A stretch of DNA of 64,000 bases from Rhodothermales bacterium (GTDB lineage Bacteria; Bacteroidota; Rhodothermia; Rhodothermales; Bin80). The notes under the pieces were generated by a model. The model made no database searches, was not told the origin of the DNA, and saw only the letters and a program-made list of their open reading frames with translations. Of this stretch, positions 18,797 to 26,782 are shown piece after piece (the first letter of the stretch is position 1; each line of letters begins with the position of its first letter). The translations under genes were made by a program, and so were the position numbers. The stretch is taken from assembly GCA_958296045.1 (NCBI GenBank), contig CATQHT010000002.1:682001-746000 (forward strand). The letters run 5' to 3'.

Positions 18797-21040
18797 CTAA
18801 TACTCGTATCTGTCTGTCTCGACGGACTCGCTCGTCTCGGGCATTGGAAACTTTGCCTCGAGGCTGATTGCTACCTTAGCATCCTTGGTGATCCGCTGCA
18901 GAAAGTCTCCTACCACAAAGAGGGCATTATGCGCGCCCTGGCCCCACCAGTCTGATCGAAAGGCGATACGCCGGTCATTAAATCCTACCCACGAGCCGGT
19001 GACAAGCTCAGGATGCATCAGCATAAACCATCCGTCAGCGCGCTCCTGCGTCGTTCCCGTCTTGCCCGCGAAGTCGTAACCATGGAGCCCGAATTGCCAC
19101 CGGATCCTGTGGCCGGTACCGTACGGCTTATCAATCACATCCCGCATCATATCCAGCACGGTGGCTGCGGTCTCCCTGAGCAGCTCCACCCGAGGCTCCA
19201 GATGGTATTCGTACAGCGGAGTGCCATCCTGATCTTCAATGCTTAGCACAACCACCGGGTCTTGCCTTGCGCCCAGATTAGCGAGCGTGCTGTATGCGGT
19301 CACCATGTCTAGAAGCGACACATCGCTGGTGCCTAATGCCAGAGACAGAACCGCCTCTAGGTCGCTCTTGATGCCCATTCCATGGGCGAACTGGACCACC
19401 TGTTTGGGCCCGAGCTCATGTATCAGCTGCGCCGAGATGGTGTTGAGGGAGCGTGCGAGCGCCTCACTCAAAGGGTAATACTTTCCTGTTGACTCGCCTC
19501 CTGAATTCTGCGGGGCCCAGACGGTACCGGATCCAGGCACCGGGTATGAAAACACCTTGTCCTGGTATTCCTCGTCGGGGGACCAGCCTGTCTGGATGGC
19601 CGAAGCGTACAAGATGGGCTTGAAGGTGGAGCCAGGCTGGCGTCGCGCCACACTGACGTGGTCGTACCACTCGGTGGCTAGGCTGCGTCCTCCGACCCAG
19701 GCTTTGACATGGCCGGTACGCGGGTCCACCGAAAGCAGTCCGGTTTCCAGGCGCGTCTTGGCATTCTTGAGGGAATCTATAAACGCCGCATCGTCGCGCA
19801 GACGATTCAGTGCTTCCAAAGGCGTTATACCAGCACGTACCAATTCGCGGAAGTGGGCGGTTTCGCGGATGAACGTCTTCAGTTCCTCTTGGTGAGTCTC
19901 CCAGTACCAGGCGAATCGCTGCGGCGGGTCTTGATGGCAGGCGTCGGCCATGTACAGGGCCATGTTGTCGAAAAAGTCCAGCCGTTTCGATGTGGACGTG
20001 CTCCATTCGCAATTCGCTACGGCCTGGAGCGAGTCCAGCATCCCTCTGGCAGCCGTCTCCGCGTGCTGCTGAATGCGCCCGTCGATCGTGGTGTACACCA
20101 CCAAGCCGTCTTCATAGACGTCAAATCCTGCCTTCTCGCCCCATGCCTGAACCCACTGGCGCACGTATTCTGCGGCATAGGGGGCAAAGCTCTGGGTCAC
20201 ATCAGCTGTGCGCAGCGTCGTTGGTGTCAGCCGATCCTTATGGTGTCCATAGAATTCGGGGCTGAGGTTGTCTCGCCGCACCATGGCGCGCAGCACCGCA
20301 TTGCGGCGGACGCGGGAGTTTTCTGGGTTGCGGGCAGGGTCGTAGCGGGTACTGGCAGCCAACATCCCTATGAGCGCCGCAGCTTCTAAGGTATCGAGCT
20401 GCGTGGCGGGCTTGTCGAAATAGGTTCGGGCGGCGGCTTCGATGCCAAAAGCGTTGTGCCGGAAGGGCACCGTATTCAGGTACATCTCAAGGACCTCTTC
20501 TTTGGCGTAGCGCCGCTCCAGCTGCACAGCGGCGCCCATCTCCTTGAGTTTGCGCTCGACGCTGACCTCGAATCCAATCTGGCTGTTGTATAGGTTGCGG
20601 GCGAGCTGCTGGGTGATTGTGGATCCACCCTGCTGTTCAAACGGTAGCCCGATCTTGCCGAGCAGCGTCTGAGTCAGCCCGGAAAATGTCCGCCACATAT
20701 CGATGCCCCAGTGCCTCCAGAAGCGGTGGTCCTCGATGGCTACGAGCGCGTGCACCACATGTCCAGGGAGGCTGTCGTAGGTGATCCAGGTGCGGTTCTG
20801 GCGGCCGTAGCGCCCCAGCACCTGGCCGTCGGACGTATAGGCAACCGTCGCCAGGGTGAGCTCGAAATTCTGACTTTCAATTTCCTGCAATTCCGGCAGG
20901 TTATTGCTGGTGGTGAACCAGTAGGCGTATCCTATGGGCAACAGTGCGGCTAGGGTTATAGCTGCTGCCAGAAGGAACAGAACTTTGGTCGCCCGCCTGA
21001 ACCTGCCGTGGGATGATCTTTCGGGTCGCCGGGTCGTCAT
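18797..21040 (-). CDS. Class A penicillin-binding protein (PBP1A-like transglycosylase/transpeptidase)
   Basis: I use the ATG at 21040, giving 747 residues with a short cytoplasmic tail and one membrane helix at about 19-40. The glycosyltransferase domain has the catalytic Glu in AIEDHRFWRHWG (E103) and GGSTITQQLARN at about 139-149. The transpeptidase domain carries all three active-site motifs: STFK with nucleophile Ser471, SLN at 531-533 and KTG at 660-662 (AGKTGTTQERADG). It polymerises and cross-links peptidoglycan at the cytoplasmic membrane. A long insert at about 345-430 lies between the domains. A decayed full-length copy of the same gene follows upstream (21216-26782). Confidence 0.95.
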   Translation of the reverse strand: MTTRRPERSSHGRFRRATKVLFLLAAAITLAALLPIGYAYWFTTSNNLPELQEIESQNFELTLATVAYTSDGQVLGRYGRQNRTWITYDSLPGHVVHALVAIEDHRFWRHWGIDMWRTFSGLTQTLLGKIGLPFEQQGGSTITQQLARNLYNSQIGFEVSVERKLKEMGAAVQLERRYAKEEVLEMYLNTVPFRHNAFGIEAAARTYFDKPATQLDTLEAAALIGMLAASTRYDPARNPENSRVRRNAVLRAMVRRDNLSPEFYGHHKDRLTPTTLRTADVTQSFAPYAAEYVRQWVQAWGEKAGFDVYEDGLVVYTTIDGRIQQHAETAARGMLDSLQAVANCEWSTSTSKRLDFFDNMALYMADACHQDPPQRFAWYWETHQEELKTFIRETAHFRELVRAGITPLEALNRLRDDAAFIDSLKNAKTRLETGLLSVDPRTGHVKAWVGGRSLATEWYDHVSVARRQPGSTFKPILYASAIQTGWSPDEEYQDKVFSYPVPGSGTVWAPQNSGGESTGKYYPLSEALARSLNTISAQLIHELGPKQVVQFAHGMGIKSDLEAVLSLALGTSDVSLLDMVTAYSTLANLGARQDPVVVLSIEDQDGTPLYEYHLEPRVELLRETAATVLDMMRDVIDKPYGTGHRIRWQFGLHGYDFAGKTGTTQERADGWFMLMHPELVTGSWVGFNDRRIAFRSDWWGQGAHNALFVVGDFLQRITKDAKVAISLEAKFPMPETSESVETDRYEY

Positions 21041-21215
21041 CTGTGCTTTATTAGCCCTGGCCAAAGGTGGCGGTACAATAGTGGTGTGGTCGAGGCGATT
21101 TGCAGGTGTCCATCGGCGGCGTGCAGGTTCCGTCACTAGCCTCGGTGCCAATGCACTGGGCAACGCTACCACGTCGCCCTACGCTGCAGGCGGCATCGCT
21201 GTTCCAGCATCGTAA

Positions 21216-22142
21216 TCACCTGACCAGATCCGCCAGATGGCTGTGTCCGATAGCCAAATCCAGTGTGCGCGCGGCGTAGCACTTCCACTGGTCATCTGAA
21301 GCCGGGAAATCCGCCTCCCGACGGAATGCCACCTCCAGATCCTGGGCGACCCGGCCCATAAAGCCTCCTACCACGTAAGAGGGCATTAGGCGCCGCCTGG
21401 CCCCAGAAAGCTGATCGGATGGTGAAATGCGAGTCATGGAATCCTACCCAGGCGCTGGTGATCAGCTCAGGATGCATTGGCATGAGCCACCCGCCAGCGC
21501 CTTTCTGCGGGGTTGCCGCCTTCTGGGCTAAGTCGCACTCGCGCAGTCCGTACGGCCACCGGATCTGATGGCCAGTGCCATTTACCTGGTCGATTACATC
21601 CCTGAGCATATCCACCACGGTGATCGTTGTCGTCCAATGAAGGCCCACCTGCGGCGCTGGGTGGTGTGGGTACATCACCGTGCCGTCACGATCTACGAGG
21701 CTCAGAATGACTACCGCGTCCTGCTTTTTGCCCAGGTTGGCCAGCGTGCTGTATGCAGTCACCAGTTCCAGAAGCAACACATCGCTGGTACCTAACGCCA
21801 ATCATGGAACCGTATCCAGGGGCCCGTGATGCCCATCCCGCGGGCGCACTAGATGACGGGCTGCGGACCGAGCTCATCGATTCAGGTGCGCCCGGATGGT
21901 ATTGAGGGACCGCGCAAATGCCTCACGCAGAGTGCAATATTCTCGGGTCGGCACGCCTGGAGAATTCTGAGGGGTCCAGACGCTATCGGATCCAGGCTCT
22001 CGGCATGATACCACAGTGTCCTGGTAGACGTCATCTTAGGACCAGCCAGTCTGGATGGCCGCAGCATACAGGATGGGCGTAAAGGGGGAACCGGGATGGC
22101 GCCGTGTCATATCGACATGGTCGTTCCAGTCGGTAGCTAGGT
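21216..22142 (-). pseudogene. C-terminal part of a decayed PBP1A-like paralogue
   Basis: The open piece at 21801-21216 aligns end to end with residues about 568-740 of the intact PBP next door: ALGTSDVLLLELVTAYSTLA against ALGTSDVSLLDMVTAYSTLA. The KTG motif is lost (QKAATPQKGAGGW replaces KTGTTQERADGW). Between 21802 and 22142 similarity continues with stops and frameshifts. The segment ends exactly at the 8-bp target duplication of the inserted element at 22143, and the rest of the gene resumes at 25412. Confidence 0.9.
22135..22142 (+). repeat. Target site duplication, left copy
   Basis: AGCTAGGT, repeated directly at 25412-25419 on the far side of the insertion. Removing the insertion and one copy rejoins sequence resembling the intact PBP gene near 19680 (GGCTAGGCTGCGTC). 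Confidence 0.9.
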
Positions 22143-22179
22143 CTGCCCTTTACCCATATCGCGACCTAGTCTGACGACT
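22143..22179 (+). repeat. Left terminal inverted repeat (37 bp) of the outer insertion
   Basis: Perfect reverse complement of 25375-25411. The transposase remnant begins immediately inside it. Confidence 0.92.
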
Positions 22180-22763
22180 TCGATGGCGCCAAAGGGCCCC
22201 ACGCCGCTATCAAGGAGGTCTTCGGCGGCTTCGTGCAGGTGCAGCGCTGCTGTTGGCACAAGCGGGAAAACGTGGTGGCCCACATGAGCAAAGAAGATAA
22301 GCTCGTATATCGGGCGCGCCTGCAGAAAGCCTATCACATTCCAAACTGCAGAGACGCGAAGGCGGAAGTCCTATCGATCAAGGACGACCTGGAAGCCTCC
22401 AACCAACTCAAGGCCATGAAGTGTCTGGAGGAAGGCATGGAGGACACGCTCACGATCCAAAGGCTCGCAATAGCCAAAGAGCTCGGCCAAAGCCTGCGCA
22501 CCACCAACTGTATTGAGAATCTCAATAGTACCCTCGGCAGATTGACGCGCAATGTTTGCAGTTGGAACAACTCGGCACAGGTCCACCGCTGGATGGCGCT
22601 GGCTCTCATGTATGCAGAATCCAAACTGAAAACCATCCCCAATCACCAACACCTGCTCAAGCTCCGAAAGGCGCTTATGAAGGTCAGGGCCCGACTGCCA
22701 AACCCCAAAATCCCCTTCTCCCCCCAGCGGGTGCCTTGGACCTATCTTCAGGCCCAGCAATAG
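22180..22763 (+). pseudogene. Mutator-type (IS256 family) transposase, C-terminal half only
   Basis: Translation starts in mid-protein directly after the left terminal repeat with FDGAKGPHAAIKEVFGGF and QRCCWHKRENVV, the DG and C/H block of IS256-family transposases. It continues to the RTTNCIENLNSTLGRLTRNV block that holds the third catalytic acidic residue. The N-terminal half with the first Asp residues is absent, so it cannot act. A short downstream frame reaches a stop at 22763, but its last dozen residues come from the terminal repeat of the inner element. Confidence 0.85.
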
Positions 22764-22771
22764 TGCTCAGT
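22728..22771 (+). repeat. Left inverted repeat (44 bp) of the inner element
   Basis: Matches the reverse complement of 25329-25372 at 42 of 44 positions. Confidence 0.8.
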
Positions 22772-22954
22772 TCGCGGCGATGAGTGATCATGCGGAGCTC
22801 CCTTGCTGACTTTTTGCACTTCGCCGCCCGTAAGGTTTCGACATGCCGTCACTCAATGTGCGTTCAGACTTGCATTAGAGGTATCCACTGCTTACGATGC
22901 CAGTGCTGCTCCGTGGTGGCGTGCCTCTGGCTCGTGCGTCGATGCGCGACAGGG

Positions 22955-25267
22955 TCAAGAAAGTATGCTGCTCCCATGGCCATAGTCGCAACCAAGCCCT
23001 TCTCGATACGCTGCCGGCAGTATTTCGTACCCAAAGCAAATGGTGGATAGTCGCTCTAATCCGCGCCACATGATCTGAAAGCCGGGCGGTCCATCGCGAG
23101 TTCGATTCTGATAGCCGCCCATTACTGCTACTAGCAGAAGCGCCGCTTCCAGGGTGCGGGGTACCGGCAGCTTCACGTTCTTAGCATAAAAGGAGAGAGC
23201 AATCAACTGCATCGGGGAGAATATCAGCTCGGCGTCTAATCCAGGGACGGCACGCCCCAGTAAGGTGAGCATCATGACATAGCAGGCGATCACGCAGTAC
23301 ACCGCCAACCCACGTTCCAGGCGCGCTGCCGAACGCATCGCCATGCGTTCCACCTTACAGCCACTCTTGAGCACACGGAAAAAGTCTTCAACACGCCATC
23401 GCCGGGTATAATAAGTCAGGATCTGCACCGCTTCTTCTGCGCTGTGCACCGCCATACTGGTCAGCAGATACCATTCCACCGCCTTCTCTCCCTTCGGGGG
23501 CGCGATCTCCCGGACATGCACGCCGTACATCGCTACGGATCCCCCTTGCCGCTGCGTGGCGGGCAGCTGTACGCAATGGTAGCGTACCTCGGCTCGGGCA
23601 ATACGGTGACTACGTCCGTGGCGCACCTTCTTCCTGGAAGACTTCGGACGCGCCGTGACCCGTTGGATCTCTATCCGCACCTTCGCTGCGGCAGGACCGC
23701 TGCGAAGCGTCGCAAACAGCTTTTTATTCTTCGCCAGTCTCCGGTCATGACGGGCGCGGACCAGGAGTTCCACGCGATCCTGTGCCCGCTGGGCGGCAAA
23801 TAGCGCAAAGTTATCCGCCTCCCGGTCCATCACGCAGATGAGGCGACACTGCTTGGGAATCTCCTCTGCTGCTTCGCAGATGTCCAGAAATCCGTCTAAC
23901 CACTGCTGCGATCGAGGTTTGAGCGGTCCCGTATCTGGATCCCGATAACTACAACGTAATATCCCCAGAGGCAGGCCATCGGTAGTAGTAACCAGCGTGG
24001 CATGAAGGGGCATCCCACGGGATTTTGCTTTCGTCTGGTTGGTACCTATGACCTGCAAGTCTTCACAGGCGGGTCGCGTGCTGAAATTCAGCTTGGTGGT
24101 ATCCTGTATGCAGAGTACCACCTTCTGACTCCGTATCCGCTCAATCGTACGTTTGCGATGCGGCGCCAGCATGTTTTCGGGTGTTACGTCGGTCTGCTTG
24201 CTGCTCAGAAGCCGGTAATGGGCCTTCACCGCCGCCCTATCATGGCTTATATGGGAGCATATAGGCTTTCCTATCACATCGGCCAACAACGATGCGCTCT
24301 TCACCAGCCGCGTGGACAGCCGCCGGTCTCCCAGCGGAGCATCTCCGAACTCTGCCTCAACCCAGTCGTCCATGCCTTCGTGCGGTTGCCTGACCGGACG
24401 CAGCGCCACCTCGGGTACGCCCAAGTACGAGCGCCACCGGCGGTCCACTTCGTACATGAACAAGGCCTTCGGCGCTTCTTCTTTGGAATGTGCGTGGCGC
24501 TTGCCCCCAGCAGTATAGCCGATGGACAGAAAATTGGCCGCCTTGAAGCAGGTACCTTTCCATGGAGGTTCCACATACGTTTCTATCAACCAGGGGTGGT
24601 ATCCATAAAGCGCATAACAGTCGTCAGATAACTGCTTCAACACCCTGCCGAGTACGTGACTGGCCAGGTATTTGCAAGTGCCGCGTATCAGAAAGCGGCT
24701 CAAACAGAAGATGCGGTGGAGGTGCGCTTGGCGTTGGGCATCGCTCCATGCCATGAAGTGTTCCCTTGCGGCCAAGCGCAAGGCCGGGGCGGAAAAACCT
24801 ACCGCGCCCAGATATCCATGCGCGCTCACTACCAGGTACCGCAGCTGGGCACCAACAAGGGTGGTCGTACCACGAGGATGCTCATGGTGCAGCAGGGTAT
24901 TCCACACCGCACGCTGTGCTGCGGTCCGAACTCTTACTACTGCAAGACCTTCCACCTCACCCAAAGTCGCGGGCATCGCCACCGGTGGAGCAACCGCCTC
25001 GTCCAACAGGCGGGGCGATGCCTGCGCAGCATGATTGTTGAGCGGTGCTGGCAGCGTGATCTCACCCCGTGCCTCCAGCTTCAAGAGGGCTTTCGCGCAG
25101 GTAGCTACCTGTGCCCTGCCTTTGGCATCTACAAAGCCAAAGTCCTCACATACACGGCGCGCAATCGCGGTGCGATTGGGAAGGCTCTCGTCAGAAAGCC
25201 TCTTCTTCAAGCGCATGCGCCCCCGGGGAGCACTGAGAGTCCGCAAAATCTGATTCTGCTCGAACAT
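22955..25267 (-). CDS. Tn5-like (IS4 family) transposase fused to an N-terminal DUF4338 (DruA-like) domain
   Basis: A 770-residue protein, far longer than the roughly 480 residues of Tn5 transposase. Residues about 130-285 match DUF4338 (GAQLRYLVVSAHGYLGAVGF, RFLIRGTCKYLASHVLGR, ETYVEPPWKGTCFKAANF). A Tn5-type DNA-binding domain follows at about 300-355 (WVEAEFGDAPLGDRRLSTRL). The DDE core has Asp389 (CIQDTTKLNF), Asp481 (CVMDREADNF) and Glu627 within an intact YREK signature (Y620, R623, E627, K634). The C-terminus (GPPGFQIMWRGLERL) matches the Tn5 dimerisation domain. All catalytic residues are present, so it may be active. DUF4338 also occurs as DruA in Druantia anti-phage systems; its role in transposases is not known to me. 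Confidence 0.9.
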   Translation of the reverse strand: MFEQNQILRTLSAPRGRMRLKKRLSDESLPNRTAIARRVCEDFGFVDAKGRAQVATCAKALLKLEARGEITLPAPLNNHAAQASPRLLDEAVAPPVAMPATLGEVEGLAVVRVRTAAQRAVWNTLLHHEHPRGTTTLVGAQLRYLVVSAHGYLGAVGFSAPALRLAAREHFMAWSDAQRQAHLHRIFCLSRFLIRGTCKYLASHVLGRVLKQLSDDCYALYGYHPWLIETYVEPPWKGTCFKAANFLSIGYTAGGKRHAHSKEEAPKALFMYEVDRRWRSYLGVPEVALRPVRQPHEGMDDWVEAEFGDAPLGDRRLSTRLVKSASLLADVIGKPICSHISHDRAAVKAHYRLLSSKQTDVTPENMLAPHRKRTIERIRSQKVVLCIQDTTKLNFSTRPACEDLQVIGTNQTKAKSRGMPLHATLVTTTDGLPLGILRCSYRDPDTGPLKPRSQQWLDGFLDICEAAEEIPKQCRLICVMDREADNFALFAAQRAQDRVELLVRARHDRRLAKNKKLFATLRSGPAAAKVRIEIQRVTARPKSSRKKVRHGRSHRIARAEVRYHCVQLPATQRQGGSVAMYGVHVREIAPPKGEKAVEWYLLTSMAVHSAEEAVQILTYYTRRWRVEDFFRVLKSGCKVERMAMRSAARLERGLAVYCVIACYVMMLTLLGRAVPGLDAELIFSPMQLIALSFYAKNVKLPVPRTLEAALLLVAVMGGYQNRTRDGPPGFQIMWRGLERLSTICFGYEILPAAYREGLGCDYGHGSSILS

Positions 25268-25328
25268 GCTGCTATAGTAAGCAACACGACTTACAATGTC
25301 AAGTGGTCCCTATGGGCCGGGGGCAGAC

Positions 25329-25372
25329 CTGAGCACTATTGCTGGGCCTGAAGAGAGGTCCAATGCACCCGC
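25329..25372 (-). repeat. Right inverted repeat (44 bp) of the inner element
   Basis: Partner of 22728-22771. It lies about 60 bp upstream of the transposase start codon at 25267. Confidence 0.8.
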
Positions 25373-25374
25373 AG

Positions 25375-25411
25375 AGTCGTCAGACTAGGTCGCGATATGG
25401 GTAAAGGGCAG
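25375..25411 (-). repeat. Right terminal inverted repeat (37 bp) of the outer insertion
   Basis: Perfect partner of 22143-22179. Only two bases separate it from the outer end of the inner 44-bp repeat. Confidence 0.92.
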
Positions 25412-25419
25412 AGCTAGGT
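25412..25419 (+). repeat. Target site duplication, right copy
   Basis: Direct repeat of 22135-22142. Confidence 0.9.
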
Positions 25420-26782
25420 CGCGTCTTCCAACCCAGGCTCTGATGTCCCCGTTACGCGGGTCAATCGTAAGTAGCCCGGTTGCTAGGCGCATCTTGGCGA
25501 TTTGCAGAGTATCCATAAACGCCTCATCGGCTTGCAGGCGATTCAGCGCTGTGGACTGCGTTTCGCGGCCGCTTACCAGTCTATTAGAGCGCGGACCGTC
25601 GCCGACGATTATGTTTAGGTCTTCCGGGAGCGTCTCCTAGGATCAGGTGAACCACTGCAGCGGGTCCTAATGGTAGGCGTCGGCCATATACAAGGCCATG
25701 GAGCCGCGCAACTTCAGTCGCGGCGAGCACGCTGCGCTCCATTCATAATTCGCTACGGCCTGCAGTGCATCGAGCATACCAGTGGCGGCTGCATTCGCGT
25801 GCTGCTATATGCACGTTTCACGGGCGGTAGTCACTGCCAGGCCGTCTCTATCGACGTCAAATCCAATGAGTCGACCAGCTCTTAGACTCGCCGGCGCACA
25901 TGCTTTGCGGCATAGGGGGCGAGGCTGCCAGAAGCGGCCGCAGTGCGCAGCCTCGTCGGTGCGCGGATCCTTGTAGCCCTCGTAGGTCTCGTAGAACTCG
26001 GAGCAGAGGAAGTCTTGCCGCATCATCGCGCGTAGCACCGCCTTGTGGCGGACGTGGGACTCCCGGGTTGCGCTCAGGGTCGTACAGGGGTGGCCACTCA
26101 CATCGCTACCAGCGTTGCAGCTTCAAAGGTATTTAGCCGCGTATCCGACGTGCCGAAATATGTACGGACGGCTCCTTCGATGCAAAAAGCGTTGTGCCAG
26201 AAGGGCACCGTATTCAGGTGCAACTTAATGACCCCTTATTTGGCGGAGCGCCGTTCCACCCGCACGGTGGCGCCCATCTCATTGAATTTGCGCAAGACGC
26301 AGACCTCAAATCCAAACTGGCTGCTATAGAGGATGTGGGCGAGATACTAGATGATTGTGCACCCGCCCTGCTGCTCAAGCGGCAGGGCGATATTGCTCAG
26401 GAGCTTCTGTGTCACCGCGGAAAGCGTCCGCCACAGAGCGATTTTCCAGTGGCTCCAAAAGCGGCGGTCCTCACCAGCCACGAGCGCGTGCACCACATGC
26501 GCAGGGAGGATGTCATAAGATATACACGTGTGGTATTGGCATCCGCAGCGCCCCAGCGCCAAGCCGTCGGACGGATAGCCTACCGTCGCTAGGGGTAGCC
26601 CAAAGTTCTGAGGTTCGACTTCCCACAGTTCCGAAGGATTGTCGTCGGTGCCGAACATAGCTCCGTAAGCGACCGGCAGCCTTACGGCCACGGCCATCAC
26701 ACGTGCGAGGATCGACAGAATGATGGTCGCCTACCTACGCCTGCCCTGGGTAGACTTCTCGGCACGCCGGTTGGGTCGTGAT
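25412..26782 (-). pseudogene. N-terminal part of a decayed PBP1A-like paralogue
   Basis: This continues the copy interrupted at 22142. The clearest frame (26700-26347) gives VVHALVAGEDRRFWSHWKIA, matching VVHALVAIEDHRFWRHWGID of the intact PBP, including the catalytic Glu. The start codon position appears as ATC (near 26782) instead of ATG. Several stops and frameshifts follow. Host sequence on the two sides of the insertion adds up to about 2.3 kb, nearly the length of the intact gene (2.24 kb), so this was a full-length tandem duplicate that decayed. Confidence 0.9.

What the first reader, a model, noticed from the sequence alone, without database searches (positions are those of the whole stretch)
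22955..25267. Intact Tn5-like transposase with a DruA-like (DUF4338) N-terminal domain
The 770-residue protein joins a DUF4338 domain to a full Tn5/IS4-type transposase with all DDE and YREK residues. DUF4338 is the DruA component of Druantia defence systems, whose biochemical role is unclear. A transposase context suggests the domain works on DNA, perhaps in target choice or end recognition, and may show where DruA came from.
Basis: partly seen in the sequence, partly recalled or inferred. Interest (0 to 1): 0.55.

Follow-up and report, generated by a model that had tools for sequence, protein, structure and literature searches.

The report
Tn5-type transposase with Mom-like domain
A jumping gene in this bacterium has fused its cut-and-paste enzyme to a domain related to Mom, the DNA-modifying enzyme of phage Mu; related transposons elsewhere carry the same domain with its Mom-type active-site residues intact, whereas in this fused lineage two of them are lost although the domain is well conserved.

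Summary
In detail: 22955-25267 (-) is an intact 770-aa Tn5/IS4-family transposase with an N-terminal PF14236 (DruA/DUF4338) domain. The ends were misplaced: the mobile unit is 22143-25411 with an 8-bp duplication. It has about 90-bp inverted ends, the left one split by an IS256 fragment. The fusion is no oddity: 26 of 41 PF14236 matches in this genome lie in open frames of 683-814 aa.

The modelled domain has a GNAT fold. By profile and structure its nearest solved relative is phage Mu Mom (adenine N6 modification); similarity to Druantia DruA is confined to 51 columns. The same domain is a partner of three transposase groups: IS66 (gene between tnpB and tnpC), ISAs1-type (fused or operonic) and Tn5/IS4. 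The Mom residues H48, Y49, R101, S114, Y149 are nearly all kept in 22 domains outside the Tn5-fusion clade. All 23 domains of that clade have Pro for Y49, and none of the 22 readable keeps Y149. Yet the domain is the best conserved part of the fusion. I infer a Mom-type module recruited by transposons, first as a separate coupled gene, then fused and probably turned into a non-catalytic DNA-recognising or regulatory part. No activity was tested.

The parts
22135..22142 (.). target-site duplication, left copy (AGCTAGGT)
   Evidence: exact 8-bp duplications in 6 of the 9 copies with both ends (L001, L002, L003, L004, L006, L009), none in L005, L007, L008; read by eye
22143..22179 (+). left terminal inverted repeat, outer part
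22180..22724 (+). 3' fragment of an IS256-family element inserted in the left terminal repeat; shared by 8 genomic copies
   Evidence: IS256 profile on the ORF
22233..22763 (+). truncated IS256-family transposase ORF (176 aa), not part of the Tn5-type machinery
22725..22773 (+). left terminal inverted repeat, inner part
22955..25267 (-). fusion transposase, 770 aa
25058..25267 (-). N-terminal helical region, residues 1-70 (four helices in the model; fold not identified)
24413..24952 (-). GNAT-fold, Mom-related domain, residues 106-285 (Pfam DruA)
24197..24367 (-). Tn5-type transposase DNA-binding domain, residues 301-357
23288..24187 (-). DDE catalytic region, residues 361-660 (D389, D481, E627)
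23039..23293 (-). Tn5-type dimerisation domain, residues 659-743
25326..25372 (-). right terminal inverted repeat, inner part
25375..25411 (-). right terminal inverted repeat, outer part
25412..25419 (.). target-site duplication, right copy (AGCTAGGT)

Best explanation
The N-terminal part is a GNAT-fold module related to phage Mu Mom, which DDE transposons have recruited as a transposition accessory more than once. Shown by sequence and prediction: the fold, the Mom kinship, the association with Tn5/IS4, ISAs1-type and IS66 transposases, the single clade of the Tn5 fusions, the lack of two Mom tyrosines in that clade, and continued purifying selection on the domain. Inferred: in IS66 and ISAs1-type elements the module is an active base modifier; next to a Tn5-type transposase it began as a separate, translationally coupled gene, was fused, lost Mom-type chemistry and was kept as a non-catalytic DNA-recognising or regulatory part of the transposition complex. 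That part would act at the long terminal repeats, where the Tn5-type DNA-binding domain binds the tip and the Mom-like part contacts more DNA.
For: Fold: AlphaFold2 model of residues 1-290, pLDDT 90.4. Best Foldseek hit in the PDB is Mom 8bv8 (E 8.3e-6, TM 0.43 by query and 0.59 by target), with general GNAT enzymes close behind from 2.3e-5. VIA-align: 8bv8 Z 15.2, rmsd 3.3, 166 aligned; next row Z 13.0. Profiles: A2 (31 domains) against A5 (11 Mom) probability 96.6, pairwise E 4.9e-10, 168 columns; 15 of 31 domains match Pfam Mom at E <= 1, best 5.6e-4, and no other GNAT family is among the six listed; 4 of 4 non-fused domains match the PHROG Mom family, E 3e-5 to 6.4e-3. Comparison: Druantia-DruA-type proteins against Mom give probability 0.08. 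Partners of 45 domains: IS66 14, ISAs1-type 7, IS4 operon 1, Tn5 clade 23. Residues: Y49 kept in 20 of 22 domains outside the Tn5 clade, Pro in 23 of 23 inside; Y149 kept in 22 of 22 outside, in 0 of 22 readable inside. Tree (built, read): Tn5 clade UFboot 100, with L079 98. L079 has both tyrosines, and its stop codon overlaps the ATG of a frame that by eye is a Tn5-type DNA-binding domain. Conservation: GNAT part 56% mean identity over 45 pairs of 10 fusions, against 52% for the DDE region.
Against: The window's own domain matches neither Pfam Mom nor the PHROG Mom family. The Mom matches for which bits are shown are below Pfam's cut-off (16.3 and 23.9 against 27.1). Of the Mom-invariant positions E98 and A138 are in no DruA domain, S136 is mostly Thr, G71 and L99 differ between the groups, and H173 and Y207 were not mapped. 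H48, R101 and S114 are still kept in the fusions, so chemistry of another kind is possible. The model of the whole fusion is poor (pLDDT 65.6, pTM 0.45), so no contact between the domains is shown. DNA binding is not tested. No other GNAT family was profile-compared as a control. One IS66 copy (L239) has Pro for Y49 and one ISAs1-type copy (L230) has Phe, so the split is not perfect.
Confidence: 0.5

Rival explanations
1. The fused domain is still an enzyme with altered chemistry: it transfers an acyl group to DNA or to a protein, with H130, R191 and S203 doing the work.
For: H, R and S at the Mom-equivalent positions are kept in 22, 23 and 22 of 23 Tn5-clade domains; purifying selection; GNAT fold.
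Against: Y49 and Y149 are lost in all readable copies and D139 is G, C or S in 12 of 23. The role of these residues in Mom is not known to me from a paper that I could read.
Confidence: 0.2
2. One reading: it is a DruA-type DNA-binding domain that helps in target choice or end recognition and marks the origin of Druantia DruA.
For: Pfam PF14236 covers both; shared block around 'RD-x-W-x-GW'.
Against: Only 51 columns align with Druantia-type DruA, though the large insert there may hinder the alignment; PADLOC Druantia models miss the window protein and 3 of the 4 other transposon proteins scanned, L079 matching weakly at 1.4e-5; target sites of fused subfamilies look alike, which the transposase core alone could give.
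Confidence: 0.12
3. The domain carries out Mom-type adenine modification of the element itself, to shield it from restriction or to time transposition, in the window copy too.
For: The Mom signature is intact in most IS66, ISAs1-type and IS4-operon relatives.
Against: The window copy has P131, E233 and F241 in place of Mom Y49, D139, Y149.
Confidence: 0.08
4. A neutral hitchhiker: the fusion is an accident of one transposon lineage without function.
For: It is one clade.
Against: dN/dS 0.12-0.41 in the pairs where it could be computed, and the highest mean identity of all parts; 31 of the 32 transposase matches over cut-off in the genome have a PF14236 match in frame or within about 6 kb (my count); recurrent association with three transposase groups.
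Confidence: 0.05

Closest known systems
Phage Mu Mom (PDB 8bv8; Pfam PF25680)
   Same: GNAT fold over residues 105-290 of the model (Z 15.2); profile match over 168 columns; H48, R101, S114, G146, A151, N153 and G158 of Mom kept in the window domain
   Different: Y49, D139, Y149 are Pro, Glu, Phe; extra N-terminal helices; fused to a transposase; no Pfam or PHROG Mom match for the window copy
Tn5/IS50 transposase (IS4 family)
   Same: DNA-binding, DDE and dimerisation domains in the same order; DDE and YREK residues
   Different: about 290 extra N-terminal residues; about 90-bp two-part ends against 19 bp (recalled); 8-bp duplication against 9 bp (recalled)
Druantia DruA (PADLOC PDLC00001/2)
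   Same: same Pfam family; shared block of about 50 residues
   Different: large insert; no HYL or HHY motif in the ORFs searched; no detectable profile match to Mom. Their gene partners were not examined systematically
DUF4338 GNAT domain fused to DndF (PMC10853773, one passage seen)
   Same: same Pfam domain, already called a GCN5-like acetyltransferase domain there
   Different: fused to DndF of a defence system; the passage mentions neither Mom nor transposases

Membership tests
IS4/Tn5-type transposase | profile match over the curated cut-off and DDE plus YREK residues | tested here: met
IS4/Tn5-type transposase | terminal inverted repeats and target duplication | tested here: met
   8-bp exact in 6 of 9 copies with both ends
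Pfam DruA (PF14236) | score over the gathering cut-off | tested here: met
   69.9 bits against 27
Druantia DruA | match to PADLOC DruA models | tested here: not met
   0 families at E <= 1
Druantia DruA | Druantia gene neighbours | tested here: inconclusive
   between the ends only the fusion and an IS256 fragment were identified; of the neighbours only two were profiled, a penicillin-binding protein and a phosphoesterase
GNAT superfamily | fold | tested here: met
   (predicted model)
GNAT superfamily | acyl-CoA binding or transfer | not testable with these tools
   no assay
Mom family (PF25680) | Pfam Mom match over cut-off by the window domain | tested here: not met
   only DruA listed at E <= 1
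Mom family (PF25680) | residues H48, Y49, R101, S114, D139, Y149 of Mom in the window domain | tested here: not met
   window H, P, R, S, E, F
Mom family (PF25680) | same residues in the 22 IS66/ISAs1-type/IS4-operon relatives | tested here: met
   H 22, Y 20, R 22, S 22, D or E 21, Y 22 of 22

The most novel reading that the evidence does not exclude
Transposons of three DDE groups carry their own Mom-type DNA hypermodification enzyme, which marks adenines at their ends or in their DNA to time transposition or to escape restriction; in the Tn5 lineage this writer was fused to the transposase and turned into a reader of DNA within the transposition complex.
Probability: 0.3. Interest if true: 0.88.

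Novelty: new variant of a known kind. Interest (0 to 1): 0.62.

Why it matters
It gives a testable biochemical lead, Mom-like GNAT chemistry or DNA recognition, for a Pfam family that is named after a defence protein of unclear role. It also points to a possible layer of transposition control, base modification encoded by the transposon itself, that can be tested directly: most IS66 and ISAs1-type copies found here carry the module with intact Mom residues, and the Tn5 fusions carry a natural series of altered ones. It warns that annotating such genes as Druantia parts on the Pfam name alone would mislead.

Tried and rejected
Whole-fusion structure: pLDDT 65.6, pTM 0.45; not used for contacts between domains. 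VIA rows cover about residues 96-290, so the fold of the N-terminal helices was not identified. Sequence search of the PDB with A2 found nothing at E <= 1. The genome-contig scan with the window protein gave 2 loci, one matching only the transposase part. Plasmid searches with the DruA part found relatives in 2 records only; phages none. Comparison A2 against A3 was meant as a control but only re-found the shared domain. Neutral hitchhiking was rejected.

Rows left out. A2 used the window plus 30 of 34 cluster representatives (L005, L104, L128, L129 dropped). The residue and tree counts used 45 domains (31 of A2 and 14); viral loci L166, L195, L196 (same contig as L165), L197 (partial) and L198 were not added, although L198 reads HHYLS, RFLIFPW and ETFVDRSRFKGTCYKAANW. 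The label 'Tn5' was given by default in the scripts: of those 23 domains, 16 are in one frame with Tn5-type transposase sequence, L110 and L123 lie beside it in a separate frame, L119 has fragments of it nearby, and for L108, L111, L122 and L124 none was seen, their contigs ending there. L122 looks decayed. Long Druantia-like frames of G650, G732, G785 and G815 were not classified. Ten DruA-type proteins went into A7, of which five were checked with PADLOC. 'tnpA' of the IS66 loci is my name for a small ORF alike between loci; the one scanned has no Pfam match. 'ISAs1-type' for L125, L230, L241 and L242 rests on DDE_Tnp_1_assoc; the NCBIfam ISAs1 profile was matched by L168, and L080 bears that name in its record.

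Literature: DUF4338 in 3 papers; DruA with Druantia in 47, 30 listed, of which passages of PMC12458937 and PMC11090510 were seen and PMC13192584 has no whole word DruA; PMC12458937 has no word transposase, acetyltransferase or GNAT. DruA with transposase and fused in 0; Mom searches; IS66 with Mom-like in 1, listing only. The Mom papers I wanted were not held, so the role of a Mom residue is known to me only from the PDB title of 8bv8 (inactive mutant S124A). My equation of S124 with S114 rests on a numbering offset of about 10.

Full report
Observation. The ORF at 22955-25267 (-) encodes 770 aa without a stop. Pfam finds DruA (PF14236, E 2.6e-19, residues 107-234), Tnp_DNA_bind, DDE_Tnp_1 and Dimer_Tnp_Tn5 in that order, and NCBIfam the IS4_3 transposase at 286 bits. 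PADLOC finds nothing at E <= 1. D389, D481, E627, Y620 and R623 are invariant over 14 fusions, with K634 nearly so.

The element. Comparison of genomic copies shows that the ends lie at 22143 (CTGCCCTTTACCC) and 25411 (GGGTAAAGGGCAG), flanked by AGCTAGGT. Of nine copies with both ends (L001-L009; L001 is the window's), six have exact 8-bp duplications and three (L005, L007, L008) do not (read by eye). The end repeats are about 90 bp in two parts. In eight copies (L001-L008) the left one is split by about 545 bp of the 3' part of an IS256-family element, of which 11 further near-full matches at 95-96% lie elsewhere in the genome. As four copies besides the window's (L002, L003, L004, L006) share the insert and have their own exact duplications, the split element is evidently mobile, so the inner part of the left end need not sit next to the outer part. 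Copies L009, L010, L012, L013, L016 and L017 have the unsplit left end.

Extent. The genome (4.78 Mb) has 41 PF14236 matches, 26 of them in open frames of 683-814 aa, and 56 matches of the transposase profile, 32 over cut-off. By position, 31 of these 32 have a PF14236 match in frame or within about 6 kb, some of them split by insertions or frame breaks; the exception is C3:1545030 (my count from the two lists). In relatives, 9 of 15 genomes of the same family and 0 of 23 of other families of the order have a match; in a phylum sample 6 of 296, own genome included. One relative of the same family has the same matches as a Rhodothermales MAG, which places the window in that order (inferred).

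What the domain is. A model of residues 1-290 has pLDDT 90.4. Its best PDB match by Foldseek is phage Mu Mom, 8bv8, with general GNAT enzymes close behind; by VIA-align Mom leads with Z 15.2 against 13.0 for the next row. Among viral models a Mom protein is second. Profile comparison of 31 domains with 11 Mom proteins gives probability 96.6 and pairwise E 4.9e-10 over 168 columns, and 95.5 for nine domains outside the Tn5 clade alone. Pfam Mom is matched by 15 of 31 members (best E 5.6e-4) and by L242 at 3.8e-5, 23.9 bits against a cut-off of 27.1, so the matches shown with bits are below cut-off. The window's own domain matches neither Pfam Mom nor PHROG's. PHROG's Mom family is matched by the four non-fused domains scanned. 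Druantia-DruA-type proteins against Mom give probability 0.08, which shows that the comparison is not indiscriminate; another GNAT family was not tried. A passage in PMC10853773 already calls DUF4338 a GCN5-like acetyltransferase domain; passages in PMC7824862 describe the Mom family as GNAT enzymes that modify adenine N6.

Druantia. Proteins of 639-1185 aa from the phylum of a 'Deltaproteobacteria' MAG gave good PADLOC DruA matches in the five that I scanned (E 1.5e-80 to 4.5e-182). Against ten of them the transposon domains align over only 51 columns (probability 58.6). PF14236 therefore joins two rather different groups, and the origin of DruA is not settled here.

Partners. Outside the window's family the domain was found: between tnpB and tnpC of IS66 elements (tnpA, tnpB, DruA and tnpC all found in L170, L215, L233-L238; tnpA is my name for a small ORF alike between loci); next to IS66 tnpC in L165, L167, L198, L232, L239 and L240; downstream of IS66-type tnpA/tnpB in L169; fused to ISAs1-type transposases (L080, L168 twice, L241, L242); directly before ISAs1-type transposases (L125, L230); before a Tn5-type transposase in Candidatus Thiodictyon (L079); and fused to one in L231. 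All 14 regions fetched, 13 and one, chosen because the match was not of the long Druantia type, had a transposase partner: 10 IS66, 3 ISAs1-type, 1 Tn5 fusion. Two copies of an IS66-type element, 99.8% alike over 3002 bp with different flanks on the side that can be compared, lie in one viral contig. The surveys had 12 of 235, 18 of 317 (same phylum, partly overlapping) and 3 of 98 genomes with PF14236.

Active-site residues. At the positions of Mom H48, Y49, R101, S114, D139, Y149, A151, N153 and G158, the 22 domains outside the Tn5 clade have H 22, Y 20, R 22, S 22, D or E 21, Y 22, A 21, N 21, G 22. The 23 of the Tn5 clade have H 22, Y 0 (Pro 23), R 23, S 22, D or E 11, Y 0 of 22 readable (F 20, I 2), A 22, N 11, G 20. 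Of the other Mom-invariant positions, G146 is shared, E98 and A138 are not, S136 is mostly Thr, G71 and L99 differ between the groups, and H173 and Y207 were not mapped. In the maximum-likelihood tree the Tn5 clade has UFboot 100 and joins L079 with 98. Of its 23 members 16 are seen in one frame with the transposase (the rest are told under Tried and rejected). L079 has the intact tyrosines; its stop codon overlaps the ATG of another frame that by eye is a Tn5-type DNA-binding domain, which breaks off before an annotated IS91-type insertion, and the rest of the transposase follows behind it. The simplest order, inferred, is a coupled gene pair with intact residues, then fusion and loss of the two tyrosines. 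L231, a fusion from the phylum of the 'Deltaproteobacteria' MAG, already has both changes.

Selection. Over 45 pairs of 10 fusions the GNAT part has 56% mean identity, the DDE region 52%, dimerisation 50%, DNA-binding 47%, N-terminal helices 41%, linker 40%, tail 23%. dN/dS in the GNAT part is 0.12-0.41 in the 12 of 17 pairs where it could be computed. The domain is needed for something.

Mechanism. I think it most likely that the domain recognises DNA in the transposition complex and no longer modifies it (about 0.5). Target choice is less likely its job: duplications of the window's subfamily and of a second fused subfamily (TCCTAGCC in L092, GCCTAGGC in L086), and two of three sites next to the right ends of a third, have a CTAG-like centre, and Tn5/IS50 itself prefers a similar centre (recalled). 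In the second and third subfamilies my search found no long inverted repeat like the window's (matches of 9 and 8 bp), so the long two-part ends are not a feature of all fusions, which weakens the idea that the domain reads them. The boldest reading, a transposon-encoded Mom-type writer that became a reader, is not excluded (0.3).

Print. The searches showed no paper that reports DruA or DUF4338 fused to transposases or in IS66 elements; most listed papers were not opened, and the library lacks most subscription papers, two that I asked for among them.

Noticed in passing
window 21292-21801 (-), 25805-26101 (-), 26347-26700 (-), beside 18797-21172 (-): Short ORFs on both sides of the element resemble pieces of the intact penicillin-binding protein gene upstream; the element seems to sit in a decayed tandem copy of it (by eye).
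   Followed up: no
window 22180-22724: IS256-family 3' fragment inside the left end repeat; carried along by at least four other copies with their own exact duplications, so a split end repeat still works.
   Followed up: partly
L171 1367-7547, L172 2236-8324: Two DruA-type genes pointing outward around a gene of about 498 aa; in L171 it matches MzaB (E 4.3e-15). Possible defence locus of its own.
   Followed up: no
L173 3887-7444 (+): DruA fused to an SspF/DndF-like ATPase part (1185 aa).
   Followed up: no
L127 2931-4964: 382-aa protein with a partial PF14236 match followed by a 286-aa protein that looks like an HNH nuclease by eye.
   Followed up: no
G000:C3:1545030-1546223: The one transposase over cut-off without a PF14236 match nearby: perhaps a fusion that lost the domain.
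   Followed up: no
L239 3130-4482: IS66-type copy with Pro for Mom Y49, as in the Tn5 fusions but with Y149 kept; a possible independent partial loss.
   Followed up: no
L089, L086, L092 and L099 ends: Other fused subfamilies have only short or imperfect end repeats, unlike the long two-part ends of the window's element.
   Followed up: partly
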